Below, piece after piece: positions 3,677-44,733 of a stretch of 44,733 bases of DNA. Source of the DNA: a virus; the IMG/VR virus record IMGVR_UViG_3300042867_000519, positions 1 through 44,733 of that record; one strand, written 5' to 3'. Made by a program: the position numbers and the translations under genes. Each line of letters opens with the position of its first letter. The stretch's first letter is position 1. The notes under the pieces were generated by a model. It did no database searches and was not told where the DNA came from. It worked only from the letters and a program-made list of their open reading frames with translations.

Positions 3677-4651
3677 TTAAAATAGATCGTCGAATGTGAT
3701 AGACTGTGTTTTCTTGGAGTACTCTACAGGACGCTTGTGAAAGAAATCAGTCATAGTATTACCCATTACATCTTCATCCATCCACATAGTCAAATCAATA
3801 ATTTCTTGAGACACATTAAAAATCTTTTTGAATCCAATCATTTCTAGTGAATCATTTAATCTTTTTTGTACATATCCTTTGAGAATATCTGCACTGATTC
3901 TTGAATCTTTATAGTCACCAATCATCCAATCAATGATTTTGGATTCGGCATCGTAGGATTCTTTGGCTTCGTGCAGAATGCGTGCTTCCAATTCAGCGTC
4001 AAACAATTCTGGCAGTTCTTGTCGAATTGTATTTACGATCTTAACGCCAGCAAGACCATGCAATGTTTCTTCTTTGGCTGTATATGCAACTTGTTGTGCA
4101 GTGTCTTTGAGTAGACCCTTGTAGCGATTAAACCAATTGATGATATAAAACTGACTAAATAATGACACGTTCTCTACATACAATGTAAATAGAATAAGAG
4201 AGTATACAAATTGTTTTTTATCATTTTCATAGTTCTTATCAAGATACTTGCGTAAATACTTGATTCGTCCTTGAATAATATCCAACTTTAGATTTTCTTC
4301 AAATATATCCTGCAATTGTAGCACATCCAATAGTTTTTCATATGCATTGTTGTGAATAACTTCAATGTTTCCCATAGTAATACCCAAATCAGATAATGCT
4401 GGGTGTGGAAGTGTATCACCCAACTTTGTCCAAAACTTCTTTACAGAAATTTCAATTTGACCAATAGCACTCAATGTGTTCTTGATGATGAGCTGTTCTT
4501 GTAGAGTCATCTCAGTCTTGTATTGTTGCAAGTCAGATGTAAATGTGAACTCGTTTGGAGTCCAATGTCCCGCCCACATTGCGTCTATATATTCTTGTGC
4601 CCAAGGATAGCGATTCGGTTTGCGTGCAATTTGTTCGTCGAAAATAGTCAT
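3677..4651 (-). CDS. nrdB: Ribonucleoside-diphosphate reductase, small (beta) subunit, class I
   Basis: This is the di-metal/tyrosyl-radical subunit that initiates catalysis in NrdA. At 324 aa it has normal family length. Metal ligands can be placed: Glu67 in GQIEISVK, Glu97 and His100 in NIEVIHNNAY, Glu160 in YVENVSLF, and Glu195 and His198 in KEETLHG. The radical tyrosine is Tyr104, four residues after the His as in E. coli R2. The C-terminal tail ends in SITFDDLF, the sort of acidic/hydrophobic peptide that docks to the large subunit. It is transcribed just ahead of nrdA, giving the order nrdB-nrdA. Confidence 0.97.
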   Translation of the reverse strand: MTIFDEQIARKPNRYPWAQEYIDAMWAGHWTPNEFTFTSDLQQYKTEMTLQEQLIIKNTLSAIGQIEISVKKFWTKLGDTLPHPALSDLGITMGNIEVIHNNAYEKLLDVLQLQDIFEENLKLDIIQGRIKYLRKYLDKNYENDKKQFVYSLILFTLYVENVSLFSQFYIINWFNRYKGLLKDTAQQVAYTAKEETLHGLAGVKIVNTIRQELPELFDAELEARILHEAKESYDAESKIIDWMIGDYKDSRISADILKGYVQKRLNDSLEMIGFKKIFNVSQEIIDLTMWMDEDVMGNTMTDFFHKRPVEYSKKTQSITFDDLF

Positions 4652-28478: not shown

Positions 28479-30029
28479 ATGGCAAGACCCAAGAAAAATC
28501 CAATACACACAAACATGCTTTGCAAGACATGCCAAATGGATTTTCAAGTCAAATGGGTCAAACGAAATATACAAAAATATTGTTGTAAGTCATGTGCCAA
28601 TAAAGACCCAGAGGTGCTGCTAAAAATGAGGCAATCTCAAAAACAAACTTCGTTGCTAAAATATGGTGTGGAACATCCTATGCAGACAGCAAGTGTTGTA
28701 CAGAACCTCAAGATCAGTATGAAAGCAAAGTATGGTAAAGAGTTTGCTCAACAAGTAAAATCTATCAACGACAAGTCTAAGCGAACCAACATGATACACT
28801 ATGGAGTTGAAAATATTCTACAAAAAAACAGTCCATTGAGAGAAAAGATCATAGATGGTTGGATGAAAAAATATGGAGTGGATAATCCTGGTAAATCTCG
28901 TGAAGTTATAGATCGCAGAAGTAAAGTAAAACAAGAAAATCATTATGAAAAACTTTGTGCATATTTTAATAATCAAAAAATAGAATGGTTGATAAAACCA
29001 GAAGAATATGATGGTTATCATTTTTCCAAGAAATACAATTTCAAGTGTAAGAAATGCAATGGAGGATTTGATTCTACTGTATATGTTCCCACAGATGTGT
29101 TTTGTGAATTGTGTCATCCTGAAAAGAAAATCACCGCCGAAACATCATTGCACGAGTTTTTGGTGTCTGAACTAAACGGAAAAACTGTGTCAAGACACAA
29201 TCGAACTATATTAGAAGGTAAAGAACTTGACTTTTATATACCAGAATTAAATTTTGCTATTGAATATAATGGTTTATATTGGCACAGAGAAGGTCAAACA
29301 AGAATGAGTAAAAACTATCATTTGGATAAAACAACAAAATGTGCAGAGAAAAATATACGATTGATTCATATATTTGAGAATGAATGGAAACATAAAACAA
29401 ATATTGTTAAATCTATTATTCGCCAAAGTTTGGGCGGTTCAATGGCTAAAATATATGGCAGAGAATGTGAAATCAAAAAAGTTGATAAAAACAGCAAACG
29501 AGAGTTCTTGAATAATTGTCATATACAAGGTGATGATCGTTGCAGTGTTGCTTATGGATTATACTATAAAGATTCTCTTGTGAGTATTATGACATTTTGT
29601 AAGAGTCGATTTGATAAGAAAATAGAATGGGAAATATCAAGATTTTGCAATTCACTCAATACACGAATACTTGGTGGTGCCAGTAAATTGTTTAGTATCT
29701 TTTTAGAAGATTATAAACCAAACAGCGTGGTAAGTTATTCTGACAGACGATTTTTTACTGGTGACATATATAACAAACTTGGCATGCAGTTTGTTGGAAA
29801 TACTGCACAAGGATATCATTATGTATCGCCGGATTTTAGCACATTATTCAATCGTCAAATGTTTCAAAAATCCAAACTAAAGAAAAAATTACAAAAATTT
29901 GATGAGTCATTGTCTGAATGGGAAAATATGAAAGTTAATGGATTTGATAGAATATGGGATTGTGGGCATTCAAAGTGGATTTTTAAAAATTCTATAAAGA
30001 ATAATACACTGTCTGTTAATATAGTGTAA
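28479..30029 (+). CDS. Homing endonuclease, EDxHD/Vsr-like nuclease with repeated DNA-binding motifs
   Basis: This 516-aa protein is on the opposite strand from its neighbours. Near the N-terminus are CxxC pairs (CKTCQMDF, CCKSC), a zinc-finger-like element. They are followed by repeated units of the form KYGVEHPMQ / HYGVENILQ / KYGVDNPGK, typical of phage homing enzymes and their DNA-recognition repeats. The nuclease core around residues 235-310 reads ELDFYIPELNFAIEYNGLYW then H, with a downstream Y-H-L-D-K-T-T-K, which fits the EDxHD family related to Vsr/PD-(D/E)XK. The C-terminal part resembles the extension seen in Hef-like proteins. It is a free-standing selfish element inserted between tail genes. 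Confidence 0.85.
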   Translation: MARPKKNPIHTNMLCKTCQMDFQVKWVKRNIQKYCCKSCANKDPEVLLKMRQSQKQTSLLKYGVEHPMQTASVVQNLKISMKAKYGKEFAQQVKSINDKSKRTNMIHYGVENILQKNSPLREKIIDGWMKKYGVDNPGKSREVIDRRSKVKQENHYEKLCAYFNNQKIEWLIKPEEYDGYHFSKKYNFKCKKCNGGFDSTVYVPTDVFCELCHPEKKITAETSLHEFLVSELNGKTVSRHNRTILEGKELDFYIPELNFAIEYNGLYWHREGQTRMSKNYHLDKTTKCAEKNIRLIHIFENEWKHKTNIVKSIIRQSLGGSMAKIYGRECEIKKVDKNSKREFLNNCHIQGDDRCSVAYGLYYKDSLVSIMTFCKSRFDKKIEWEISRFCNSLNTRILGGASKLFSIFLEDYKPNSVVSYSDRRFFTGDIYNKLGMQFVGNTAQGYHYVSPDFSTLFNRQMFQKSKLKKKLQKFDESLSEWENMKVNGFDRIWDCGHSKWIFKNSIKNNTLSVNIV

Positions 30030-31847: not shown

Positions 31848-31858
31848 TATAAATATCA
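31848..31858 (-). promoter_or_regulatory. TGATATTTATA motif, copy 5
   Basis: An exact copy spans the stop codon of the homing endonuclease gene (its first three bases are the TGA) and ends 4 bp before the ATG at 31,843. Confidence 0.35.
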
Positions 31859-32653
31859 CGATTTTGTTGAATGAGCGAGTTTTTTCTTTGAGTTTTCCCA
31901 AACTATTTCAACACCATAACCGGCCAACATCAATTTATTTGTTTTAATAGCATCTTTGTTCCATTTTTCTTTTGCCGTCATGTGCAAAGACTTATTATAA
32001 TAATCCGGTTGACATTTTGATGGATTGCAATGCCAATAATCACCGTAACATTCTATTGCTTTTTTTAACGACGGTATGTAAATATCCACCGAACATCTTG
32101 CATCTTTTAGATATTCTTCCAACCGTGCGTCTGGATATTCTAATAAAACAAGATCATAAGTTTGTTTTTGAAACTTAGATATGCGTTTTCCGTTTGATAA
32201 TATGGCAGACGGGCTATCAAAATAGCACGCGGTTCCGTATTTTCTCATGCAAGTATTTGCAGCTTTTTCCGGATTGTTGTATTTATAATTTCCGTATTTT
32301 GTTAGTTTGGTTTCCGATATTTTCAATCGAGACTTTTTTGAATTCATTGGATTGTTTGTTAAAAATATGTTTCTGCACATCTCTTTGTGCTCATTGGATT
32401 TCACATTACATTCATTTGAACAATATTGCTGCAATTTTCCAGACCTTGGGTGTAGTATTCTTTTATATCTATCAAACGGTTTATTGCAATTTAGGCAATT
32501 TACAATTTCGTGATTTTGCGATTTTCTCCAAGCATACATGGCTTTTGTGTCTATGAATCTTTTATTTCTGTGCTTCCAATCAACCGTGAAATATTTACCA
32601 GTCCATTCGCAAATTTTATTTATTGACTTCGGGTTTCCATAATTTGTTTTCAT
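31856..32653 (-). CDS. Second homing endonuclease, Vsr/EDxHD-like
   Basis: I chose the ATG at 32,653 (265 aa); a TTG at 32,683 would add 10 residues. There is a zinc-finger-like pair CLNCNKPFDRY...CSNEC in the N-terminal half, then repeats of the KYGNYKYNNPEKA / KYGTACYF type. The catalytic region SVDIYIPSLKKAIECYGDYW is followed by H, C and a downstream H-M-T-A-K-E-K-W...D, which matches Vsr-like/EDxHD nucleases. It differs in sequence from the endonuclease at 28,479 but has the same architecture. It sits between tail sheath and HAD genes, downstream of the sheath terminator. Confidence 0.8.
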   Translation of the reverse strand: MKTNYGNPKSINKICEWTGKYFTVDWKHRNKRFIDTKAMYAWRKSQNHEIVNCLNCNKPFDRYKRILHPRSGKLQQYCSNECNVKSNEHKEMCRNIFLTNNPMNSKKSRLKISETKLTKYGNYKYNNPEKAANTCMRKYGTACYFDSPSAILSNGKRISKFQKQTYDLVLLEYPDARLEEYLKDARCSVDIYIPSLKKAIECYGDYWHCNPSKCQPDYYNKSLHMTAKEKWNKDAIKTNKLMLAGYGVEIVWENSKKKLAHSTKS

Positions 32654-32704
32654 ATAAACATAAATATACGACCCTGTAGGCAAAATGATGAAATCCTGCT
32701 ATAT

Positions 32705-32755: not shown

Positions 32756-35743
32756 TTATGCGCCCGGAAAAACAGCACCGCTCGGGAGTACATTGAAATC
32801 AAGTACGATAAATTCTGCTGTGCGTGTTGGTTGAATATAGATTTGTCCGTATAGAATATTGCGGTCAACCACATCAGGTGTGTTGTTGCTGTCATCCATG
32901 ATTACCTTGAAGGAATAGATGCCAGAACGTTGTTGTACGCTTTCTAGATATGGATTAACGATGTTCAAGAAACGTTGACGAGTTGTTGATACATTCTGCT
33001 CAAACACTAGATAGCGAGAAGAAGATGCAATGAACTTTTTCAGTGCAATCAACAAACGGCGAACGTTGATGCGATCCAATGCAGAAGGCTGACGTTGCAG
33101 TGTCTTTTGACCCCATGCCACCACACCTTGACCTGGAAACGCTGCGATTGGATTAACGTGACCTTCGTATAGAGTGTCGCGCTCGGTATGTGTCAAACGA
33201 TCAGCAACTTGAACGGCTTGTGGAATACCACCACGGTTCAGACCGGCGGGTGCAAACCATTCAGCAGCCACCTTGTCATTGGCGGCGTAAACGCTCATCA
33301 TAACGACAGATGGTGGAACTGGTATGACTTTGTTGCTGTTGGTATCAACGATCTTGACCCAAGGATAATAGGTGGCAGCATAGTTTGTGTCAAACTGTGA
33401 AGCTATGTCTACTACGTTTTGGATAGAAGTATCACCAGCCATTTGGTTTGGTGCAATGTCCATGATATAAAATGCATCACCACGACGTTCACAGGTGTCG
33501 ATAACGAGCGAAGCGACGTATGGATGATCTTGATATTGAATGCCGGGTGTTGTGATGAGATTAAAATCAAACTCATCTGCATTACCCAATGCAGTCAAAC
33601 ATTGTTTGTATGCGTAAGAACCATAGCTTTTGTTGGTAGAACAATCCAATCCTTGTTGATTGGTTGGTAAGATGTCATTACCAACCAGTAATGGAATCGA
33701 AGGAGATTGACCGTCAAAACCACCTTGGAAACCAAGAATGAAACGACGTTTCTTGACGTTTATATTTTCTTGGCTGGCAACATACAATGGAGTAATACCG
33801 CAGTTTGTTTCCAAATCAAATGCAGTGTTTGCTCCGGCTGCAAAACCAAGTGGAATTGGAGCAAAATATTGCTTGTTGTCAAGTTCTGGACCAACCGAAC
33901 GACCGGATGGATACAGGGCCGAAAGATCATCGTCGGCTTGTGCTGGCGCTGGTTGAAATACAATGCCAGATGCATAACGACCTGGCTGCAACAAATAGGC
34001 AGACGCACTACAATATTGCATTGCTGGCAACTTGCTTAGGCGTGCATATTCTCCACCGATTGGTGCGGCATATGGGCCAAATCCAAATGGAATTGAGTCA
34101 ACTGGCCACGGAGATGTTGCCATTTCAACGCGTATCAGCTTGCTCTTGTTGGAATAATCACCAAATTCAACAATCTTTCCGTTAAAGTCGATATAGTTAT
34201 AAACATCTCCGATGCGACGAGCAACATAGTTGCTGCTGTTTACATCCAAGTTTAGACCGTCATAACGTTCTATTATTTGTGGTTTTGCGTCTGTGTCGGC
34301 GAATGCACGCAGAATCAGCGAGAACGAACCATATTTTGAACCTGGAACTGAACCAGCAGAACGAACGTTGTTGATTTCAACCTTGTATAGAGTATTGGCA
34401 GAAGTTCCATCACATATGGTATTCACTTTGAACAAGTCATACGCCAGAGACGCTGATGTATTGAAACCAGCAACCAATTGTGAGCGAATATATGGAGTAT
34501 AAGCATTGGTCAAATCATAAAGAGATGTTCCAACGTCTGGTGTAATGCCATCAGTGAAAGCCATGTTATCGCGAGAAGAAATTTGAATCTTCCAACTGCC
34601 AGAAGCCAACATTTCATTTATAACTTCTCTTGTTCTGTTCTTGAAGTTTTTGTAGGTATAAGCAGCCTCGATCTTTTGACCGGCTGATACTGGAATAAAT
34701 CCGGCTTTTGGATCAGTACCAAATACATTAGTTAGATAAGCAGAAGATTCTGTATCTAACGAGAATGTGTATGTACCATATGAACTGCTAACATATTGAT
34801 TTGTGTCAGTGTCAAGGTGAACGTCATTTAGTACTAAACTATATTCCGCATTAAGGACTGTTGCATTGCTTGCTGTTTCCAACAGAACAGAGCCACTGAA
34901 ACCAAATAGATTTTGTCCGCGATCATATGCCGTGTTGGCCAGAACAGCCAAAACAACTTCGTCACGACCAGTAACCATCGAGGCACTTCCACAACTGTCT
35001 TCACTGGAAATTGTATCAGGTGTCCAGTTGCTAACATTTATAGCACCATAAGAACCGGTCAAAATACCAGAGATATCCAAAGTGTAATTACAACCACCGG
35101 CTTCTAACAGCGTAATGCTTGCGGTTGGAATGGTTGATGCGGCTGGTAGATTGGAAGAAGTCACCGATAGATTATAAGCAACGCAAGAAAAGAAACTGCT
35201 GGTAGTAGAACCAGTTACAGTTTGACCCGCGACTGTTGTGAACGCAACATCACCAACAACTACAGTAGAACCGGCATAGATGCCAGATGAGAATTCCAAG
35301 CTCAACGAGCCAGAAACTGTGAATACTCCAGGTGAAACGTATGTTACTGAACTATCAAGCAACGATCCACTAAATGAACCGCTTTCAGCGAAGCGTGCGT
35401 ATTGACCAGGAATTGCACTGATGATCAAAGCATCTTTTTGTTCATAGCCACCCAATCCACCAACGCGGCAGACTGTGACTTGACCTTGCTGACGCAAGTA
35501 TTGTTGAGCAGCGATTGGACCATATAGTGTACCATCAGGATCACCAAAGATGCTTGTTAAGTCACCCTCGCTGGTTATTACCGTTGGAGAAAATCCTGGT
35601 CCCTTGTTGAAGGGAGCAACGACTACTCCACCGATTGCTGCCACACCTTGTGCCAGAAACGATTGATCAATTTCGCGGGTGAATACACCCGGTGAAACGA
35701 CACGTTCTGACGGACTATAATTTGCATTTTGTTCTATTGCCAT
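32756..35743 (-). CDS. Tail sheath protein, T4 gp18 family
   Basis: The 995-aa protein forms the contractile outer tail. N-terminal signature: VSPGVFTREIDQSFLAQGVA then GGVVVAPFNKGPGF. C-terminal domain: GVVAWGQKTLQRQPSALDRI then NVRRLLIALKKFI and FEQNV, followed by IYGQIYIQPTRTAEFIVLDF, all typical of gp18. T4 gp18 has 659 residues, so about 330 are extra; the added Ser/Thr/Gly-rich beta segments lie roughly at residues 110-300 and probably form domains displayed on the sheath surface. It has a clear Shine-Dalgarno sequence (AACAGGAGAAAATAAC before the ATG). Confidence 0.95.
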   Translation of the reverse strand: MAIEQNANYSPSERVVSPGVFTREIDQSFLAQGVAAIGGVVVAPFNKGPGFSPTVITSEGDLTSIFGDPDGTLYGPIAAQQYLRQQGQVTVCRVGGLGGYEQKDALIISAIPGQYARFAESGSFSGSLLDSSVTYVSPGVFTVSGSLSLEFSSGIYAGSTVVVGDVAFTTVAGQTVTGSTTSSFFSCVAYNLSVTSSNLPAASTIPTASITLLEAGGCNYTLDISGILTGSYGAINVSNWTPDTISSEDSCGSASMVTGRDEVVLAVLANTAYDRGQNLFGFSGSVLLETASNATVLNAEYSLVLNDVHLDTDTNQYVSSSYGTYTFSLDTESSAYLTNVFGTDPKAGFIPVSAGQKIEAAYTYKNFKNRTREVINEMLASGSWKIQISSRDNMAFTDGITPDVGTSLYDLTNAYTPYIRSQLVAGFNTSASLAYDLFKVNTICDGTSANTLYKVEINNVRSAGSVPGSKYGSFSLILRAFADTDAKPQIIERYDGLNLDVNSSNYVARRIGDVYNYIDFNGKIVEFGDYSNKSKLIRVEMATSPWPVDSIPFGFGPYAAPIGGEYARLSKLPAMQYCSASAYLLQPGRYASGIVFQPAPAQADDDLSALYPSGRSVGPELDNKQYFAPIPLGFAAGANTAFDLETNCGITPLYVASQENINVKKRRFILGFQGGFDGQSPSIPLLVGNDILPTNQQGLDCSTNKSYGSYAYKQCLTALGNADEFDFNLITTPGIQYQDHPYVASLVIDTCERRGDAFYIMDIAPNQMAGDTSIQNVVDIASQFDTNYAATYYPWVKIVDTNSNKVIPVPPSVVMMSVYAANDKVAAEWFAPAGLNRGGIPQAVQVADRLTHTERDTLYEGHVNPIAAFPGQGVVAWGQKTLQRQPSALDRINVRRLLIALKKFIASSSRYLVFEQNVSTTRQRFLNIVNPYLESVQQRSGIYSFKVIMDDSNNTPDVVDRNILYGQIYIQPTRTAEFIVLDFNVLPSGAVFPGA

Positions 35744-36133: not shown

Positions 36134-36251
36134 ATAGTTTTATAACGTTTATTGTTTCATTCATATATATGGATATATATAGTCAAACAATATATATAAT
36201 AACTAAAAACTTACCATTGCAAACTTTTCATCATTCACAACCATTTAAAGT

Positions 36252-36932
36252 TTATATATTATAACCATAATTGAATTTATCAAAATCTTCTTTATAAAAT
36301 TTATATACTTTATCTTGTAATTCTTGTGTATAATATTCTTGATAAGGCTTGTCTATATGACTCTTTCTTGTGTGGTAATCAACAGTTCCGTTGGTTTTTT
36401 GCTTGATTTCGGCGAAACACTCTGCCAAGTTTTCGTATCTGTATATTTTTATATTTGTAGAGATGTGTTCACCGTCTGTCAAAAATGAAACTTGCGGTTC
36501 CAAATGTCCCTCAAACATTTGGATACGATCTGATTCGGTGTGGTCTAATTTTGTTAAAAAACTCTGAAATGATTCAGGAACATATGAATTAATTGCTTTG
36601 TTTATAGAAGCTTGATATAACAAATAGTGATATTCTGATACTATTCGGGAGTATGGATTTCTAACAACAGAAAATACAAAAAAATTTTTTAAAAAATAAA
36701 ACGGCAATAACTTTTTAAGTTCCGAGTATGTGTAATGATACGCTGTTCGATGTGTCAATCTAACCACATCATCCACTGAAAATTTTTTGGGATTAACATA
36801 AATGGATGTCTTCTTTATGTCTTGAAAACACAATTCATCAATAGTGTTAACATCTATCAACCGTTGAACAGAACTGCCCGCACATTTTGGAATATGTACA
36901 AATATTATTCTGTGTTTATAACTTATAGGCAT
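36252..36932 (-). CDS. Sulfotransferase (carbohydrate-type, PAPS-dependent)
   Basis: The 226-aa protein would transfer sulfate from PAPS to a sugar. The PAPS 5'-phosphosulfate loop is FVHIPKCAGSS (11-21), and the 3'-phosphate motif is SVVRNPYSRIVSEYHY (88-103). Both match the Sulfotransfer_2 family, which includes chondroitin and heparan-type sulfotransferases. Catalytic His and Lys/Arg candidates fall in the LTHRTAYHYTY block around 59-69. Its ATG lies 17 bp inside the end of the upstream GT8-like gene, so they are co-expressed. The acceptor is unknown; neighbouring glycosyltransferases and fibres suggest a virion or host-surface glycan. Confidence 0.88.
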   Translation of the reverse strand: MPISYKHRIIFVHIPKCAGSSVQRLIDVNTIDELCFQDIKKTSIYVNPKKFSVDDVVRLTHRTAYHYTYSELKKLLPFYFLKNFFVFSVVRNPYSRIVSEYHYLLYQASINKAINSYVPESFQSFLTKLDHTESDRIQMFEGHLEPQVSFLTDGEHISTNIKIYRYENLAECFAEIKQKTNGTVDYHTRKSHIDKPYQEYYTQELQDKVYKFYKEDFDKFNYGYNI

Positions 36933-38025
36933 CCTTATATTCCCGAATGTATTTTATTTTGGTATTACCGTTCGTGGCAGATCCAGCAAAATGCAAAATA
37001 ACGCCGTGTGAATTATGAACCATTTCTAATGTAAATGATTCTGGTACCGGTTCTTTAAAAGAATATATACTGTTCATGGCACCATACACTATCAAACTCT
37101 TGAGCAGTTTTTTTACTGGTTTTTCAACTGGTTTTTCAACTAAAATCTTTTTCAGACGAGAAAAATTGATCAATTCAGCATCACCAATTTTTAATTTTGA
37201 CGATAGTCCATTAAAAACAAAATATTGATTTACAAATGATTGCTCGAAAAAATACAATGCTGGCCAATTTTTCATCATCCATTTTACATTTTCAAAATGT
37301 TTCTTCATTCTTTCGGTGTTCAAAAAAAGAAATTGCCCCGCATTTATTGCCAATATTTTTTCTGGGTTTTGCTGAATGAATGTTGCATCTCTTGTTGTTA
37401 AATACATCAAACCGTGTGTAATTGTGTATATCTTTTCAAATGATACGTCAACAGGAACTGCGCTATAAAACAATCCGTCTCCAAGTTCAACGTCAAATAG
37501 TATATTTAAATCTCTCAGACACAGGATATCACAATCTAAGAATAAAATTTTATTGTAATCTGAGATAAATTGGAAATCGTGTATATTCATTTTTTCCATT
37601 GATGCGCGAACCCCTGATATTGGTGATTCTTTTATCAAGAAGTGAATATTGAATTTGTCGTAGAAGATTCGCTGTTTAATTTTTTCTGCAAAAATTTCGT
37701 CAGTTATAAACAATATATCAAAATTTATATTTGGGGTATGTTTCAACACACCGTCCAACAGCATTTCAACCATGTCTAAATATGTATCATTTAAAAACAA
37801 AGTAAAATATAAAAGGTTCTTTGTTCCACTTGGCGCAGATGTTGGAATAAGATTTGCCTCGTCTATTTTTAAATACAAATCATTGAAGAAATTCTCTTTA
37901 CCACCATCGTTATTTTCGTATGGAGAATTTTTGTTCTTGAGTAGCATCCGACCCATACCACGAATAAGTTCAATATTTTTCGTTGAAGTGTTGCTGGCCA
38001 GTGCTTTGATTTCTTCTATTAGCAT
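36916..38025 (-). CDS. Glycosyltransferase, GT8-like, paralogue B
   Basis: The 369-aa protein is a GT-A fold glycosyltransferase using nucleotide-sugars. The DxD metal site is ILFLDCDILCL (DCD 164-166), preceded by NFDILFITDE. The motifs INAGQFLFLN and KKHFENVKW, then YFFEQSFVNQYF, and the C-terminal VILHFAGSATNG correspond to GT8 features (HFxG near the end). It is a clear homologue of the protein encoded at 38,431-39,531, including the N-terminal helical region before the catalytic domain. An unusual VEKPVEKPVKK repeat lies near residue 300. Acceptor and sugar are unknown. Confidence 0.85.
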   Translation of the reverse strand: MLIEEIKALASNTSTKNIELIRGMGRMLLKNKNSPYENNDGGKENFFNDLYLKIDEANLIPTSAPSGTKNLLYFTLFLNDTYLDMVEMLLDGVLKHTPNINFDILFITDEIFAEKIKQRIFYDKFNIHFLIKESPISGVRASMEKMNIHDFQFISDYNKILFLDCDILCLRDLNILFDVELGDGLFYSAVPVDVSFEKIYTITHGLMYLTTRDATFIQQNPEKILAINAGQFLFLNTERMKKHFENVKWMMKNWPALYFFEQSFVNQYFVFNGLSSKLKIGDAELINFSRLKKILVEKPVEKPVKKLLKSLIVYGAMNSIYSFKEPVPESFTLEMVHNSHGVILHFAGSATNGNTKIKYIREYKDAYKL

Positions 38026-38119
38026 ATTTATAAATAATATTTTACCGCGTTTGTATCAAGATCATATTATTATATATATTAAACTCAAGACCTAAAACAT
38101 TATTATAATAATTAAAAAT

Positions 38120-38383
38120 TTACCATTTATTGGCTGGACACTTGCTGGCATCCAATCTCACTTTGGTGGTCATAAAACATCCACAAAGTTTGCAGCGTGC
38201 CGATGCTACTTCAAAACAAGTGCAAGTTGAACATATCTGCATACGAGATTGTGCTTTTTCTTCTGTTGCCATAAGTACGCCATTTTTTGCCATACCTTCT
38301 AAAGATTTCAATACAGACTCGCTCAAATTGAACATGAGGCTGATTGGATTGTTGTTCATTTTTACTTCTGGTTCATTGTTCAT
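38120..38383 (-). CDS. Small zinc-ribbon protein between the glycosyltransferases
   Basis: The 87-aa protein has a C-terminal half with CSTCTCF and CKLCGCFMTTK, then ASKCPANKW. This is a compact Cys cluster that probably binds zinc, in a family I have seen in many T4-like and marine phages with the ending CPxxKW. The N-terminal half is helical and hydrophobic (PISLMFNLSESVLKSLEGM). The function is unknown. It may belong to the glycan island only by position. Confidence 0.75.
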   Translation of the reverse strand: MNNEPEVKMNNNPISLMFNLSESVLKSLEGMAKNGVLMATEEKAQSRMQICSTCTCFEVASARCKLCGCFMTTKVRLDASKCPANKW

Positions 38384-38430
38384 ATGCTATAATTAAAGTT
38401 TTGTAATAATAATGACTGATAGGCATGACG

Positions 38431-39531
38431 TTAATATATAAATAATTGATGCGTTGTTGCGTAAGTTTGAATATACTCCAATTTTATTGCACCGTTGAGA
38501 GGATAACCGGCAAAATGTATCAACACCGTAGCGTCTGTATGTTTTTTACTATAATCCAACTGGCCGACGGACTGTGACATCAAAACCGGAGCATATTTGC
38601 TATTCGTCGCGCCCGTAACAACCACGTTCACACGCGTTTTTTCTGGGTTTTTTAGTTGCGGTGGGTATAAAACCATTATGTGTATGGGCTCAAGCAAAGG
38701 TATTTGGTCGGTCAAATCATTGAGCGCAAAATAATGGTTCATGAACGATTGTTCAAAGAAATATATTCCAGGCCACACGTTTTTCAACCATCGTACATTT
38801 TCAAAATGCAATTTCATGCGATGTGAGTTCAAAAATAAAAATTGACCAGCATTGAATGATATAACGTTTGTATTTTCGTCAATAAACTTTGCGTCTTTGT
38901 ATGTAAGATACATCAAACCGTTAGTAGCAGATGTATGTGACGAGATTGAACCATTTGATTTTGTATTTAGTTTTTCTGGCGTCAAATCATAACTAAAAAT
39001 CGTATTGATGTCTTTGATACACATTATGTCCGCATCCAAAAACAATATCTTTTCATACTCATTTATTCTATGATAATCATATATGCACAATTTATTAAAT
39101 GATGCTTCTACTCCGTCTTCTGGAGTATCTATTATATGAAAATAACAATTGAACTTTTGTAGTATAGGTTTTTTCAATAATTCTTGTTTGAACTTTTCGT
39201 CTGTGATAAACAACACATCAAAGTTGATTGTTTCTGTGTTGTGAAAAATACTATTGAGAGACCATTCCAACATTTGTAGATATTCATCAGACAAAAATAC
39301 TGAATAGTATATCAGATTTTTCCCAGTGCGATATATTTGGTCTGGTGTATTTCTTGTATCTTCTATTTTCTTATATAGGTGTTGACATATTATCTCTTTA
39401 TCAACATCGTTGTCTTTATACAATGTATTCTCATTTTGTCGCATAACATGCGATGCAATGCGATTTATCAATGCAACATTTTCTGGTGTATTTGGGTTGG
39501 CGGCACGCCGCAGATTTTCTATTGCACTCAT
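38431..39531 (-). CDS. Glycosyltransferase, GT8-like, paralogue A
   Basis: The 366-aa protein has a GT-A fold with NFDVLFITDEKF and the metal site ILFLDADIMCI (DAD 166-168). FNAGQFLFLN and LHFENVRW, then FFEQSFMNHYFAL, are shared with paralogue B, as is the C-terminal VLIHFAGYPLNGAIKLEYIQ. The pair probably arose by duplication and now differs enough to use different acceptors. Its ATG overlaps the TGA of the GT2 gene by 4 bp (ATGA), so the two are coupled. Confidence 0.85.
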   Translation of the reverse strand: MSAIENLRRAANPNTPENVALINRIASHVMRQNENTLYKDNDVDKEIICQHLYKKIEDTRNTPDQIYRTGKNLIYYSVFLSDEYLQMLEWSLNSIFHNTETINFDVLFITDEKFKQELLKKPILQKFNCYFHIIDTPEDGVEASFNKLCIYDYHRINEYEKILFLDADIMCIKDINTIFSYDLTPEKLNTKSNGSISSHTSATNGLMYLTYKDAKFIDENTNVISFNAGQFLFLNSHRMKLHFENVRWLKNVWPGIYFFEQSFMNHYFALNDLTDQIPLLEPIHIMVLYPPQLKNPEKTRVNVVVTGATNSKYAPVLMSQSVGQLDYSKKHTDATVLIHFAGYPLNGAIKLEYIQTYATTHQLFIY

Positions 39532-40304
39532 AGCTCAGGAATCAAGTCCCATAGTTGTTTCCAATTTATTAAACGATCTCTGTTTTCTTCAAATTGCATA
39601 TGCAAAGCGAGGCTTGTTAATGGAGTAAATAATTGTATGTTTGGTTGTTGCCATACTTGGTTGATGGTTGAATCTTCACAAATTTCGGGATTAGATCCAT
39701 AATTGTTAGCAAAATTCTCAAAATGTTCCCATCCGCGTCTAATTACGCCTGGTGTTGTAAAAAATGTGCAAGTGGTATAATAATTTGTACGCCAATGTTT
39801 GTTTTTTCCCAAAACCACATTGCATGGTGCTATGTTTCTGGGTGATATATAATTAGCAGGATCATCAAATGGATGAATAACTATGTCTTTTTTCTGACCA
39901 AGTTGTTCAAACGCGAGATTATAAAAACCCTCCATTTCTCCCAACATCATTGGAAGATGCAAATAATCATCTTCAACCAGATACACCAATGTTGCTTCAC
40001 TGTCTCTGGCCAACTGAAAATATTGCAGTGTGGCATCATTATAGTTGTTATTTTGACGACAAATCATTTCAACTTTGTGCTGACTAGCTTGTAGAATTTT
40101 TGCAATGGAATTTATTGTTTCTGTTGAACTACCATCATCAACCACAGTCAGTTTGGTTTCATATGGACGATTGTTCGATGCAATCACAATGCTGGATAAA
40201 CATTTTTTTATTAGAGTTAGTTTGTCAGTTTTGCAAAAACGTTCTTGTGTTGAACCATGCATATTTTTTACATCACATGTTTTTATAATAATATCTAGTT
40301 TCAT
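39528..40304 (-). CDS. Glycosyltransferase family 2-like
   Basis: The start is placed at the ATG at 40,304 (MKLDIIIKTCDVKN, 258 aa); a TTG 13 codons upstream also exists. GT-A features are TKLTVVDDGSSTETI (VDD 55-57) and YLVEDDYLHLPMML (EDD 111-113). The C-terminal half is aromatic-rich with WEHFENFANNYGSNPEI. It probably adds a sugar to the same glycan as the GT8 enzymes. It starts the minus-strand glycan operon and shares a 47-bp divergent promoter region with the plus-strand GT gene. Confidence 0.82.
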   Translation of the reverse strand: MKLDIIIKTCDVKNMHGSTQERFCKTDKLTLIKKCLSSIVIASNNRPYETKLTVVDDGSSTETINSIAKILQASQHKVEMICRQNNNYNDATLQYFQLARDSEATLVYLVEDDYLHLPMMLGEMEGFYNLAFEQLGQKKDIVIHPFDDPANYISPRNIAPCNVVLGKNKHWRTNYYTTCTFFTTPGVIRRGWEHFENFANNYGSNPEICEDSTINQVWQQPNIQLFTPLTSLALHMQFEENRDRLINWKQLWDLIPEL

Positions 40305-40351
40305 AATTTCTTTAAATTCATCATATTGTGATTGACTTGTCAAGCATAAAT
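40305..40351. promoter_or_regulatory. Divergent intergenic region of the glycan island
   Basis: A 47-bp gap separates the minus-strand GT2 start and the plus-strand GT9/TPR-like start. It must hold initiation signals for both. On the plus strand CATAAATA immediately precedes the ATG, a match to the T4-type late motif TATAAATA at 7 of 8 positions, although too close to the start to be a normal promoter. Confidence 0.35.
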
Positions 40352-41386
40352 ATGTCTAATGATACAAAAATGAACGAAACAGAATTCAAAAGACAAAATG
40401 AAGGACTTGATGCAGCATTTGCATTGTCTGTCAAAGGAGATCTGGATGGTTCTGAAAAAATACTATCTAGTCTTGGCGACAATGATCCTAGAGTAAGATT
40501 TAATTTGGGTTGGCACAACATGCGGCGCGGCAATTTATTCAAAGGCTATGAAGGATTAAACTCTGGTAGAATTTTCGATGGATTTGGTGGTGCAAAAAAT
40601 CCATATGGCACATTATACAATGGTCAGTCACTAAAAGACAAAACTTTGTTGTTTCATGGCGAAGGAGGTTTGGGTGATGAAATTATTAACGTGAGATTTG
40701 TCAAAGATTTTCATGAGCGTGGCGCAAAAGTATTATTGGGATGCAACAAAGAATTGTATCCAATATTTAAGAACATACCATATGTATCTGCTGTGATAGA
40801 CAAGAATGTTTGTGTTCATAGTCATTATGATTATTGGGTACAAGCTATGTCAGCTCCATATGCTCTAAAATATGAATATAATGATTTGAGCGGCAAACCA
40901 TATTTAAATTATTTTTCACCAAAATATTTACCCAACAAACACAATAAAATCAAAGTGGGATTGCGTTGGGCAGGCAGTCCAAAATTTGAGCATGAACAAC
41001 ATCGTCGATTTCCAACAAAACATATGCTTGAATTGACTGAACTAAAACAATTTTCATTTTATAGTTTGCAAAGAGATGATGATTTGTTGAGCACTGGACA
41101 ATTTATAGATTTGAGATATGAAATGAAAACATGGCGTGACACTGCTGAAATTATATCTGGACTAGACTTGATAATAACATCTTGTACATCTGTGGCTCAT
41201 TTGTCTGCTGCTATGGGCAAACCAACATGGATAATTGTACCTGCGTTGTCATATTATATGTGGGTATTACCAGGAAACAAAAGTCCTTGGTATGATGGTG
41301 TGACATTATATCGCCAAACAGAATATAACAATTGGAACGCTCCGTTTGAGCAACTAAAGAAAGATTTGAGCAATTACAAAGTATAA
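40352..41386 (+). CDS. Glycosyltransferase, GT9/TPR-type (GT-B fold)
   Basis: The ATG at 40,352 is preferred over GTG at 40,328 (344 aa). N-terminal residues 10-70 are helical, TPR-like (GDLDGSEKILSSLGDNDPRV then RFNLGWHNMRRG). Next come KDKTLLFHGEGGLGDEIINV, a GT-B glycine loop as in GT9 heptosyltransferases, then KVGLRWAGSPKFEHEQHRRF. The C-terminal half has DLIITSCTSVAHLSAAMGKP, which matches the nucleotide-sugar site (S/T-x-x-A-H-L-A-x-A-x-G), and an ending WYDGVTLYRQTEYNNW as in bacterial TPR-glycosyltransferases. It is encoded opposite to the others but shares their promoter region, and its 3' end overlaps the convergent gene by 13 bp. Confidence 0.83.
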   Translation: MSNDTKMNETEFKRQNEGLDAAFALSVKGDLDGSEKILSSLGDNDPRVRFNLGWHNMRRGNLFKGYEGLNSGRIFDGFGGAKNPYGTLYNGQSLKDKTLLFHGEGGLGDEIINVRFVKDFHERGAKVLLGCNKELYPIFKNIPYVSAVIDKNVCVHSHYDYWVQAMSAPYALKYEYNDLSGKPYLNYFSPKYLPNKHNKIKVGLRWAGSPKFEHEQHRRFPTKHMLELTELKQFSFYSLQRDDDLLSTGQFIDLRYEMKTWRDTAEIISGLDLIITSCTSVAHLSAAMGKPTWIIVPALSYYMWVLPGNKSPWYDGVTLYRQTEYNNWNAPFEQLKKDLSNYKV

Positions 41387-41821: not shown

Positions 41822-43321
41822 TTACACTACGTCTTTTATAAGATAAAAACCGAGTCCTGGGTTTTGCCGAATTAATTTGGTTGCACTCCCACCGCTGTAA
41901 ATGGTGCTGTATGTAGTGGTGCCGTAACTGTTATAAAATACCACATTTCCGGATGTTGTAATCACCGGATATCCCGAAACACCGTTTATAGTTGGATAAA
42001 AATCAGACGTCGAATCAATCATTAAGGCTTTGTGAAAAGTATTTGAACTCATTTGCACAGGAGAACTGACAGTCGTAGCGGGATTGACTCCGTATGTAAT
42101 ACCACCCCAGCCCCATAGCGTGCCATCAGTTTTTATCGCACGCGGTCCATAGTAGCCCCCCGCTTCAACGGAGTTCCAACTGGTTCCGGCACCAACTTGA
42201 ATTGGACTGCTTTTGTCCACGGTCAAGCCGTTGCCCAAATCACCGTACGCGCCATACCCCCAACTCCACAATGTGCCATCTGTTTTTATAGCATGTGTGG
42301 TACCGGTAAATCCGCCCGAACTTAATTTCGCCCAATTGGTTAGGGTGCCAACTTGGGTTGGACTGCTGCGACTTGTTGTGTCTCCTAACCCCAATACGCC
42401 GTAACCACCGTTCCCCCAAGCCCACAATGTGCCGTCAGTTTTTATCGCAAATGAGTTGTTGCCGGTGTTGCTCGCAATTACTGTTGCCCAATTGGTTCCA
42501 GCACCAATTTGAACTGGACTGCTTTTGTTCGCAGTTGTTCCGTCACCCAGCTGACCATTTGCGTTATAGCCCCACGCCCACAATGTGCCGTCAGTTTTTG
42601 TCGCCAATACGTGATATCCAAGCCCAGACACACTGACCGATCTCCAGGTTGTTCCAGCGCCAATTTGGGTTGGAGTGCTGCGATTTACACCGTTTCCTTG
42701 CCCCAACTGGCCATACAAGTTGCTACCCCAAGACCATAGCGTGCCATTTTTCTTTACTCCAATCTGCATCGAACGTCCATAACTAGCATTTGCAAGATAC
42801 CAAGCGCCCGCGCTTCCGTATGCGCCACCGTCGCAATCTACGCAGTCCTGACCACCGGGTGCGGCGTCGCCACCGGCACCAAAACTAACAAAACCGGAAC
42901 TTATTCCTGCATCTGTTGTATAATACCCACTGGTATTGGTACCACCAAAATTCTCCAAATAAATCGCGGCAAATAAGCCGGTGGGATGCTCGCAGATACA
43001 CTGGCCATACTCATCGGGATTACCACAACAACCGCAGTTATCATCAGTAGTAAGCTCGCAGGCACCGATGTTTTCATTTTGACCTAGACCATCAAAATAT
43101 CTACCAAACGCTCTGTATCCAATTGTGTCTATTACTCCTTCATATGCATAAACTATTGCAGCACTTTTTCCATATCCATCACTCAAAGATATTGCACCAC
43201 TTGATTTATTAAATAAAGTTCTTACTGCTGCATCATTTAATGTTATTACAGCAGTGGCTGAATACCCCAGTTCGGTATTTACCATACTCATTGAAATTGG
43301 ACCTGATGCTGGTAGTGCCAT
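41822..43321 (-). CDS. Tail fibre / receptor-binding protein with RCC1-type propeller
   Basis: The 499-aa protein has a short virion-type N-terminus (MALPASGPISMSMVNTELGY then ISLSDGYGKS, residues 1-53) that resembles phage adaptor regions and probably anchors it to the tail. Residues 88-163 contain eight Cys (88, 96, 98, 99, 108, 110, 160, 163), for example CGCCGNPDEYGQCIC, an unusual Cys-rich loop that may bind metal or form disulfides. From about 186 onwards five RCC1-like repeats follow, each with GTLWSWG or GTLWAWG and a G-x-L-G turn, predicting a beta-propeller, here as a putative ligand-binding head. The last ~70 residues do not match the repeat. Confidence 0.82.
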   Translation of the reverse strand: MALPASGPISMSMVNTELGYSATAVITLNDAAVRTLFNKSSGAISLSDGYGKSAAIVYAYEGVIDTIGYRAFGRYFDGLGQNENIGACELTTDDNCGCCGNPDEYGQCICEHPTGLFAAIYLENFGGTNTSGYYTTDAGISSGFVSFGAGGDAAPGGQDCVDCDGGAYGSAGAWYLANASYGRSMQIGVKKNGTLWSWGSNLYGQLGQGNGVNRSTPTQIGAGTTWRSVSVSGLGYHVLATKTDGTLWAWGYNANGQLGDGTTANKSSPVQIGAGTNWATVIASNTGNNSFAIKTDGTLWAWGNGGYGVLGLGDTTSRSSPTQVGTLTNWAKLSSGGFTGTTHAIKTDGTLWSWGYGAYGDLGNGLTVDKSSPIQVGAGTSWNSVEAGGYYGPRAIKTDGTLWGWGGITYGVNPATTVSSPVQMSSNTFHKALMIDSTSDFYPTINGVSGYPVITTSGNVVFYNSYGTTTYSTIYSGGSATKLIRQNPGLGFYLIKDVV

Positions 43322-43703: not shown

Positions 43704-44733
43704 TTATAATCTATTTATTTTTTGCTGCAAATCTACTATCATAGAATTTTGTTCTTTGATAGCTTCAATAAGTAGTGGAATAAGTTTTTCATATCTTACT
43801 GTCATATATATTGGATCAATTGGAGCAGCTGCAATAATTTCTGGTAATATTGCTTGTACTTGTTGAGCAGATACACCCACTTCTTTTTGTTTTGTATAAC
43901 CAAAATCTAGTGCAGTTTGATTTGGCTCAAAATAAAATCCATTAAGAGACAATACTTTATTTAGTGAATCTGGAATATTACCAAGATTATTTTTAAGACG
44001 ATCATCAGAAAAATATGCAGTAACATTACCTATAGCAGTAATGTCACCAGTCACGGCCAATGAACCTGTTATAATTGTATTTCCATTAACATCCAATTTA
44101 GCATTTGGTGTTGTTTTAGATATACCAACATTTGTAGCATTGTCATATAATACACCAGTTGATAATGTTGTTGCACCAGTAAATCTTGCTACATAACTTG
44201 CTGTGCCGCCAGATATGGTGCCAGCTCCGCTGCTGCCACTTGAACCGCTGGTTCCGGCTGCTCCGGTTGCTCCGGTTGCTCCACCAGCTCCGTTGGCTCC
44301 ACTGGTGCCACTTGAACCGCTTGTGCCGTTTGCTCCGTTGGCTCCGTTGGCTCCACTGGTGCCACTTGAACCACTTGTGCCGTTGGCTCCGTTTGCACCA
44401 CTGGTTCCACTTGAACCTCTGCTGCCGCTGCTGCCGCTGGTGCCACTTGAACCGCTGGTTCCGGCTGCTCCGGTTGCTCCGGTTGCTCCACCAGCTCCGT
44501 TGGCTCCACTGGTGCCACTTGAACCGCTTGATCCGTTGGCTCCGTTGGCTCCACTGGTGCCACTTGAACCGCTTGTACCGTTTGCTCCGTTGGCTCCACT
44601 GGTTCCGCTTGAACCTCTGCTGCCGCTGCTGCCGCTGGTGCCACTTGAACCGCTGGTTCCGGCTGCTCCGGTTGCTCCACCAGCTCCGTTGGCTCCACTG
44701 GTGCCACTTGAACCGCTTGTGCCGTTTGCACCA
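43704..44733 (-). CDS. Collagen-like tail fibre with C-terminal S74 chaperone domain (5' end off window)
   Basis: The frame stays open from the window end through 43,704 (about 343 codons visible). Codons from 44,732 down to about 44,213 encode Gly-X-Y triplets (GTSGSSGTSGANGA and GATGAAGTSG types), a collagen-like triple-helical shaft. After the transition GTISGGTASYVARFTGATTL come beta-type repeats. The end contains SDDRLKNNLGNIPDSLNKVL and VGVSAQQVQAILPEIIAA, hallmarks of the peptidase S74 intramolecular chaperone that trimerises fibres and cuts itself off. The only methionine-type start inside the window (TTG, 44,096) is internal. The protein is a trimeric fibre by family knowledge. Confidence 0.9.
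   Translation of the reverse strand, partial: GANGTSGSSGTSGANGAGGATGAAGTSGSSGTSGSSGSRGSSGTSGANGANGTSGSSGTSGANGANGSSGSSGTSGANGAGGATGATGAAGTSGSSGTSGSSGSRGSSGTSGANGANGTSGSSGTSGANGANGANGTSGSSGTSGANGAGGATGATGAAGTSGSSGSSGAGTISGGTASYVARFTGATTLSTGVLYDNATNVGISKTTPNAKLDVNGNTIITGSLAVTGDITAIGNVTAYFSDDRLKNNLGNIPDSLNKVLSLNGFYFEPNQTALDFGYTKQKEVGVSAQQVQAILPEIIAAAPIDPIYMTVRYEKLIPLLIEAIKEQNSMIVDLQQKINRL
44213..44732 (-). repeat. Collagen Gly-X-Y coding repeat with a higher-order 198-207 bp period
   Basis: Besides the 9-bp triplet periodicity, long stretches recur nearly identically at 44,242, 44,449 and 44,647 (for example GAACCGCTGGTTCCGG on the plus strand). The unit length is therefore 207 and then 198 bp, i.e. 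69 and 66 codons. High DNA identity suggests recent expansion and likely length polymorphism. Confidence 0.85.

What the first reader, a model, noticed from the sequence alone, without database searches (positions are those of the whole stretch)
36252..41386. Phage-encoded glycan assembly and sulfation island
Seen: within 5.1 kb there are a PAPS-type sulfotransferase (both binding motifs intact), two GT8-like enzymes, a GT2-like enzyme and a GT9/TPR-type enzyme, with coupled starts (ATGA at 39,528; 17-bp overlap at 36,916). They lie next to two tail-fibre genes. Known: phages use glycosyltransferases to modify DNA, virion proteins or host surfaces. Inference: this set could build a sulfated oligosaccharide on fibres or sheath, or remodel the host surface. 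I know of few phage systems that combine glycosylation with sulfation.
Basis: partly seen in the sequence, partly recalled or inferred. Interest (0 to 1): 0.77.

Follow-up and report, generated by a model that had tools for sequence, protein, structure and literature searches.

The report
Phage tail-fibre glycosylation and sulfation cassette
A T4-like phage from an environmental sample carries, between its tail-sheath and tail-fibre genes, a conserved set of sugar-adding enzymes and a sulfate-adding enzyme that probably decorate its own tail fibre; one of these enzymes sits beside the same kind of fibre gene in dozens of unrelated phages and is often fused to a sulfate-adding enzyme.

Summary
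Virion-fibre modification is partly supported and sharper than stated.

(1) GT9(+)/GT2-GT8-ST recurs in two divergent relatives (L029-L032, L089) in the same slot between sheath and fibres; GT8-ST alone sits there in two more. Other relatives lack them, so it is an exchangeable cassette; ST+GT8a is bracketed by a 34-bp direct repeat present once in relatives.
(2) The GT9 gene lies beside an RCC1 fibre gene in 55 of 60 viral loci (five exceptions cut at the contig edge), including non-T4 phages; 0 of 65 distant cellular homologues do.
(3) In 16 GT9 clusters the enzyme is fused to a different sulfotransferase family (PF13469), 15 of them beside an RCC1 fibre.

Model: GT9 attaches a first sugar to the RCC1 fibre, GT2/GT8 extend it, ST sulfates it. 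The GT9 fold matches heptosyltransferases including TibC, which glycosylates an adhesin. Enzyme activities and acceptor are inferred; GT8-ST also occurs without RCC1, so its acceptor is less certain.

The parts
36252..36932 (-). PAPS-dependent sulfotransferase (ST), 226 aa, Sulfotransfer_2 family
   Evidence: PF03567 E=4.2e-16, phrog_3347; PAPS motifs conserved in 13 homologues; profile hits heparan sulfate 6-O-sulfotransferase in the PDB
36916..38025 (-). GT8a glycosyltransferase, 369 aa, overlaps ST by 17 bp
   Evidence: PF01501 37.1 bits; DxD, NAGQ and HF motifs invariant in 8 homologues; PDB profile hit 3tzt GT8
38120..38383 (-). 87-aa Cys-rich (zinc-ribbon-like) protein inside the island
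   Evidence: phrog_13558 8e-16, PF19668 below cut-off; recurs in the slot in L003, L089, L091-L093
38431..39531 (-). GT8b glycosyltransferase, 366 aa, paralogue of GT8a (40% identity)
   Evidence: PF01501 28.2 bits
39528..40343 (-). GT2-like glycosyltransferase, 271 aa (TTG start annotated; a later in-frame ATG is possible), overlaps GT8b by ATGA
   Evidence: PF00535 22.3 bits, just under cut-off; homologue in L165 above cut-off; invariant VEDDYLH; dN/dS 0.034 vs L028
40328..41386 (+). TPR plus GT9-fold glycosyltransferase, 352 aa (GTG start annotated; ATG at 40352 possible)
   Evidence: AlphaFold2 pLDDT 81.8, pTM 0.82; Foldseek best hits GT9 3tov, WaaF, TibC, WaaC; 25-member alignment with invariant GD, K and H residues
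41374..41757 (-). 127-aa protein of unknown function between GT9 and the RCC1 fibre
   Evidence: inside a 95.8%-identical DNA block shared with L028; homologue in L029; no family hit
41822..43321 (-). RCC1-repeat tail fibre, 499 aa: proposed acceptor
   Evidence: PF00415 E=1.6e-33; N-terminal 54 aa 94% identical to fibres with other C-termini in L149/L150/L153, i.e. a shared anchor
43704..44732 (-). Collagen-like (Gly-X-Y) fibre with S74 intramolecular chaperone, runs off the window end
   Evidence: PF01391, PF13884; at least 190 triplets, mainly GTS/GAN/GSS, in L002
35846..36133 (-). 95-aa protein; constant sheath-side border of the variable slot
   Evidence: conserved beside the sheath in all relatives examined
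36185..36218 (.). 34-bp imperfect direct repeat, copy on the sheath side of ST
   Evidence: 30 of 34 columns identical to the other copy, score 46 vs max 32 for random pairs; one copy only in L088/L093/L097/L098
38095..38127 (.). Same direct repeat, second copy, overlapping the end of the 87-aa gene; brackets ST+GT8a
32756..35743 (-). Tail sheath (context)
   Evidence: phrog_23 E=1.3e-73

Best explanation
The island is an exchangeable cassette that makes a sulfated glycan on the phage's own tail fibre. Shown: gene content, motifs, conservation, linkage, cassette behaviour. Inferred: the TPR-GT9 enzyme transfers a first sugar from a host nucleotide sugar onto the RCC1-repeat fibre in the cytoplasm before assembly (it works like a protein heptosyltransferase paired with its adhesin); the GT2 and two GT8 enzymes extend that glycan; the sulfotransferase, translationally coupled to GT8a, sulfates it with host PAPS. 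The likely benefit is altered receptor binding, fibre stability or charge, or escape from binding or defence. The GT9-to-RCC1 step is the best supported; the GT8-ST step acting on the same acceptor is less certain.
For: GT9 beside an RCC1 fibre in 55 of 60 viral loci found from GT9 alone; all five exceptions start within 98 bp of the contig edge. Forty-eight of the 55 are same-strand with a gap of -72 to +37 bp. Reverse test from RCC1: 32 of 46 loci with sequence beyond RCC1 have a GT9. Genome contigs: 12 of 15 phage-type homologues (33-45% identity) next to RCC1, 0 of 65 distant cellular ones. Within the T4-like clade RCC1 and GT9 are present or absent together. Fusion of GT9 to a sulfotransferase in 16 clusters at 80% identity, N- or C-terminal, 15 beside RCC1. 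Full GT9/GT2-GT8-ST order conserved in L029-L032 and L089. Isolates S-SRM01 and BUCT-ZZ01 and the single-cell virus AG-345-E08 repeat RCC1-GT9, the first with a sulfotransferase gene nearby. GT9 fold closest to heptosyltransferases including TibC. Purifying selection on GT2 and GT9. No membrane segments in the enzymes, so cytoplasmic protein acceptors are natural.
Against: GT8-ST also occurs without RCC1, GT9 or GT2 in L004, L094 and the short contig L003, so that pair is not tied to RCC1. In the window the GT9 faces the RCC1 gene from the other strand with a 127-aa gene between. Many GT9-RCC1 pairs lack any sulfotransferase. GT9 is below Pfam's cut-off and TM-scores to GT9 structures are only about 0.45-0.5. 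No virion glycan data exist.
Confidence: 0.5

Rival explanations
1. Two independent modules share the slot: GT9 (+GT2) decorates the RCC1 fibre, while GT8-ST decorates another virion protein, such as the Ser/Thr-rich collagen-like fibre or the sheath.
For: GT8-ST occurs without RCC1/GT9 in L003, L004 and L094. The collagen-like fibre has at least 190 Gly-X-Y triplets rich in GTS and GSS, compatible with O-glycosylation.
Against: The collagen/S74 fibre also occurs in L028 and L093, which lack GT8-ST. ST domains fused to GT9 show that sulfation and GT9 do belong together in other phages. GT9-GT2-GT8-ST order is kept in three lineages.
Confidence: 0.2
2. The enzymes remodel host LPS or capsule (receptor masking, superinfection exclusion).
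For: GT8, GT9 and GT2 families are typical of LPS core assembly; GT8b has a weak hit to LPS 3-alpha-galactosyltransferase and GT2 to GtrB-like O-antigen conversion. A GT25 (LPS family) lies in some GT9 clusters.
Against: No membrane segments, flippase or polymerase in the island. Genes lie among structural genes and GT9 follows the RCC1 fibre gene rather than host-takeover genes.
Confidence: 0.17
3. The TPR-GT9 protein is a fibre-folding or assembly factor with a degenerate GT fold rather than an enzyme.
For: Strict pairing with a fibre gene; TPR helices; sequence below the Pfam GT9 cut-off.
Against: Invariant GD, K219, E221, H222, H225, R226 and the T-S-AH motif over 25 divergent members; repeated fusion to a second transferase; a divergent RCC1 neighbour in L143 is a clear PF01075 GT9 (50.4 bits).
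Confidence: 0.08
4. DNA hypermodification: the transferases glycosylate and sulfate phage DNA bases.
For: PMC10829341 cites phage systems with nucleotide glycosylation and sulfation.
Against: No thymidylate-synthase-type base hydroxymethylase in the 297-kb relative or the others; location among tail genes; no match to phage DNA glucosyltransferases.
Confidence: 0.02

Closest known systems
Bacterial autotransporter heptosyltransferases (TibC/AAH with TibA/AIDA-I), PMC4358343
   Same: GT9-type GT-B fold (TibC is among the best Foldseek hits); a dedicated enzyme paired with a repeat-rich surface adhesin that it glycosylates
   Different: No iron-finger cysteines in the C-terminal region; TPR N-terminus instead of the beta-barrel; the partner is a phage RCC1 fibre, not an autotransporter; often fused to a sulfotransferase; sugar unknown
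Synechococcus phage S-SRM01 fibre/transferase region (MW015081, PMC8557907)
   Same: RCC1 fibre followed by TPR-GT9; RCC1 followed by sulfotransferase, GT2-like, glycosyltransferase and epimerase genes
   Different: Different sulfotransferase family (PF13469), no GT8 pair seen; RCC1 genes annotated as hypothetical and the linkage not described
Synechococcus phage ACG-2014f 'Galactose-3-O-sulfotransferase' cluster (NC_026927)
   Same: PF03567-type sulfotransferase (26% identity) among glycosyltransferases and epimerases, about 1.7 kb from a tail fibre gene
   Different: No RCC1 or GT9 homologue in the stretch examined; large nucleotide-sugar cluster near photosynthesis genes
Mycobacteriophage virion glycosylation
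   Same: Phage-encoded glycosyltransferases proposed to modify virion proteins (PMC11256854 abstract)
   Different: No sulfation, no RCC1 pairing (from general knowledge)

Membership tests
PF03567 PAPS sulfotransferases | Profile score above curated cut-off | tested here: met
   60.3 vs 22 bits
PF03567 PAPS sulfotransferases | Conserved 5'-PSB and 3'-PB PAPS motifs | tested here: met
   HIPKC and VRNP invariant in 13 homologues
PF03567 PAPS sulfotransferases | Sulfate transfer to a carbohydrate | not testable with these tools
   Only homology; nearest solved profile hit is heparan sulfate 6-O-sulfotransferase
GT8 | Profile above cut-off, DxD and C-terminal metal-binding His | tested here: met
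   37.1 and 28.2 vs 24.3 bits; D166xD168, H339F invariant in 8
GT2 | Profile above cut-off and GT-A fold | tested here: inconclusive
   22.3 vs 23.3 bits; homologue L165 25.0 bits; model pLDDT 67.7, pTM 0.74; PDB fold search could not be run
GT9 | Pfam PF01075 above cut-off | tested here: not met
   13.8 vs 22 bits; 17 of 25 members hit weakly
GT9 | GT9-type GT-B fold | tested here: met
   Best PDB matches 3tov (GT9), 1psw WaaF, TibC, WaaC; E=1e-5 to 1e-3, TM about 0.45-0.5
BAHT (TibC/AAH) | C-terminal iron-finger cysteine motif | tested here: not met
   No cysteine after C286 in the 352-aa protein (sequence)
BAHT (TibC/AAH) | Encoded beside the surface protein it glycosylates | tested here: inconclusive
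   Adjacency to RCC1 fibre shown; glycosylation of it not testable
RCC1-repeat protein | Several RCC1 repeats above cut-off | tested here: met
   PF00415 115.5 vs 21.7 bits, 4 stretches
Phage tail fibre | Virion localisation | not testable with these tools
   Inferred from the shared fibre anchor and position

The most novel reading that the evidence does not exclude
RCC1-propeller tail fibres form a widespread class of glycosylated, often sulfated, phage receptor-binding proteins, each with its own dedicated TPR-GT9 protein glycosyltransferase; sulfotransferases of two different Pfam families have been recruited to this module repeatedly by gene fusion or as neighbouring genes, which would give a function to phage sulfotransferases of unknown role.
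Probability: 0.4. Interest if true: 0.8.

Novelty: new variant of a known kind. Interest (0 to 1): 0.63.

Why it matters
The function of phage sulfotransferases is stated to be unclear (PMC10580990). Linkage of a GT9-type enzyme to RCC1 fibres across unrelated phages, with repeated sulfotransferase fusions, turns that into a concrete, testable claim: the fibre is the acceptor. Sulfated or glycosylated fibres would change how phage host range is read from fibre sequence alone and would be the first dedicated fibre-plus-transferase pair of this kind known to me. Cultured freshwater cyanophages (S-SRM01, BUCT-ZZ01) carry the pair, so the test can be done now.

Tried and rejected
Assembly chimera: rejected, an independent contig is identical over the island genes. 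DNA modification: no base hydroxymethylase in relatives. Phage-supplied PAPS: no PAPS_reduct-family gene in the T4-like relatives; an APS-kinase-like P-loop ORF exists in the 297-kb relative, but related P-loop kinase families score too, so it is not used as evidence. Specific link of GT8-ST to the collagen fibre: not supported, since L028 and L093 have that fibre without GT8-ST. TATAAATA late-promoter sites are enriched in the window (17 vs 3.9 expected), but those at GT8a and RCC1 lie too close to the start codons to be argued as promoters. phmmer of ST, GT2 and GT9 against the PDB gave nothing useful. Paper searches on phage RCC1 with glycosyltransferase found no prior description in the held library. 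A near-nucleotide search against phage records found no match.
Full report
What is there. The window is a 44.7-kb fragment of a T4-like myovirus: RNR, replicative helicase, UvsX, gp32, DNA polymerase, baseplate, tail tube and sheath genes. Its closest cultured relatives are distant: Microcystis phage Mel-JY01 (sheath 42% identical) and Flavobacterium phages. A second contig repeats every one of these genes at 100% identity.

Are the enzymes intact? ST keeps both PAPS motifs; much of them is invariant over 13 viral homologues, and its profile finds heparan sulfate 6-O-sulfotransferase in the PDB. The GT8 enzymes keep DxD, NAGQ and the C-terminal HF motif in 8 homologues. GT2 keeps VEDDYLH. The GT9-like protein is weak by sequence (13.8 bits against a cut-off of 22), but its AlphaFold2 model (pLDDT 81.8, pTM 0.82) has a helical TPR-like N-terminus and a GT-B domain whose best PDB matches are GT9 enzymes: 3tov, WaaF, TibC, WaaC. 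Its invariant GGLGD aspartate is at the place of the TibC/WaaC catalytic aspartate (inference from motif position; the TibC base is Asp-110, PMC4358343). Against the 297-kb relative, dN/dS is 0.034 for GT2 and about 0.10 for GT9.

Conservation and mobility. The stretch between the 95-aa gene and the fibre genes is a variable slot. GT9(+)/GT2-GT8-ST recurs in L029-L032 (four contigs of one phage type, with a second GT8 after ST) and in L089. GT8-ST alone sits there in L094 and, inverted, in L004; L003 is a short contig with Cys-rich-GT8-ST. The 297-kb relative keeps GT2, GT9 and the 127-aa gene but has no GT8 or PF03567 gene anywhere in the contig. L091-L093, L095 and L096 hold other genes. ST+GT8a is bracketed by a 34-bp direct repeat (36185-36218 and 38095-38127; score 46, maximum of random pairs 32) that is present once, at the junction without ST+GT8a, in L088, L093, L097 and L098, as expected for a gained or lost cassette.

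The link to the RCC1 fibre. A search with GT9 alone found 61 viral loci. Leaving out the window's twin contig, 55 of 60 have an RCC1-repeat gene within 2 kb, 48 of them on the same strand with a gap of -72 to +37 bp; the five without start 10-98 bp from the contig edge. Many of these contigs are not T4-like by their neighbouring genes (read by eye). The reverse search from RCC1 gives a GT9 in 32 of 46 informative loci; L143 has a clear PF01075 enzyme overlapping the RCC1 stop codon. In genome contigs, 12 of the 15 best homologues (33-45% identity) are beside RCC1, but 0 of 65 more distant cellular TPR-GT9 homologues are, which serves as a natural control. None of 24 viral sulfotransferase loci had RCC1. 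Within the T4-like clade, RCC1 and GT9 are both present (window, L028, L029-L032) or both absent (L004, L091-L096, L098), with L089 cut at the GT9 end. The RCC1 protein of the window shares a 94%-identical 54-residue anchor with fibres that have quite different C-termini, so it is a swappable distal fibre domain.

The link to sulfation. In 16 clusters at 80% identity the GT9 enzyme is fused to a sulfotransferase by motif; the nine members scanned with Pfam are PF13469, N-terminal (L049, L055, L057, L061, L082, L085, L108), C-terminal (L166) or, in L171, a sulfotransferase-GT9-methyltransferase fusion. Fifteen of the 16 are beside an RCC1 fibre. The window's ST is from another family (PF03567), so sulfotransferases appear to have joined this module more than once. 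L049 adds GT25, GT32-like and APS-kinase-like genes; the MAG contig L165 puts GT2 and GT9 together with a sulfotransferase and genes resembling sulfate-activation enzymes. In the isolate S-SRM01, RCC1-GT9 and RCC1-sulfotransferase-GT2-like-GT lie within 10 kb.

Interpretation. The best reading is modification of the phage's own fibre: GT9 as the protein-attaching enzyme for RCC1, GT2 and GT8 as extenders, ST as the sulfating enzyme. It works like TibC with its adhesin, but it is not a BAHT: the iron-finger cysteines are absent. The weak point is GT8-ST, which also lives without RCC1; that pair may serve another virion protein. Host-surface remodelling remains possible because the enzyme families are those of LPS assembly, but nothing membrane-bound accompanies them. 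DNA modification is unlikely. No activity, glycan or acceptor has been shown experimentally.

Verdict. Observation confirmed; interpretation partly supported and narrowed to the RCC1 fibre. The RCC1-GT9 pairing and the repeated sulfotransferase fusions were not found in the held literature, which covers open-access papers only.

Noticed in passing
L005-L026 source contigs (for example those of L015 and L018): Some viral contigs carry up to 11 matches to the PF03567 sulfotransferase family, in places as near-tandem arrays (L014).
   Followed up: no
L171:4664-7051: A 795-aa sulfotransferase - TPR-GT9 - methyltransferase fusion on a contig binned as Woesearchaeota.
   Followed up: partly
L165:41-7023: PAPS_reduct-domain, EF-Tu-type GTPase (CysN-like) and APS kinase genes, a sulfotransferase, a GT41 enzyme, GT2 and GT9 in one cluster on a MAG contig.
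   Followed up: partly
window 38120-38383; L091:1617-2411; L092:2660-3496 and 3763-4566: A Cys-rich DUF6171-like domain recurs in the variable slot, alone or as part of 264-278-aa proteins; function unknown.
   Followed up: no
window 28479-30029 (+) and 31856-32683 (-): Homing/HNH endonuclease genes near the tail tube and sheath, variably present among relatives.
   Followed up: no
window 43704-44732; L002: The collagen-like fibre has at least 190 Gly-X-Y triplets without proline, and its repeats align in many registers between the two contigs.
   Followed up: partly
window 32756-35743: The sheath is 995 aa, about twice the length of the matched PHROG profile (496 positions), implying a large insertion.
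   Followed up: no
window, both strands: TATAAATA (T4 late-promoter core) occurs 17 times against 3.9 expected.
   Followed up: no
L004:13132-18311: A run of about eight proteins of 217-247 aa, LamG-like by eye, in the fibre region of a relative.
   Followed up: no
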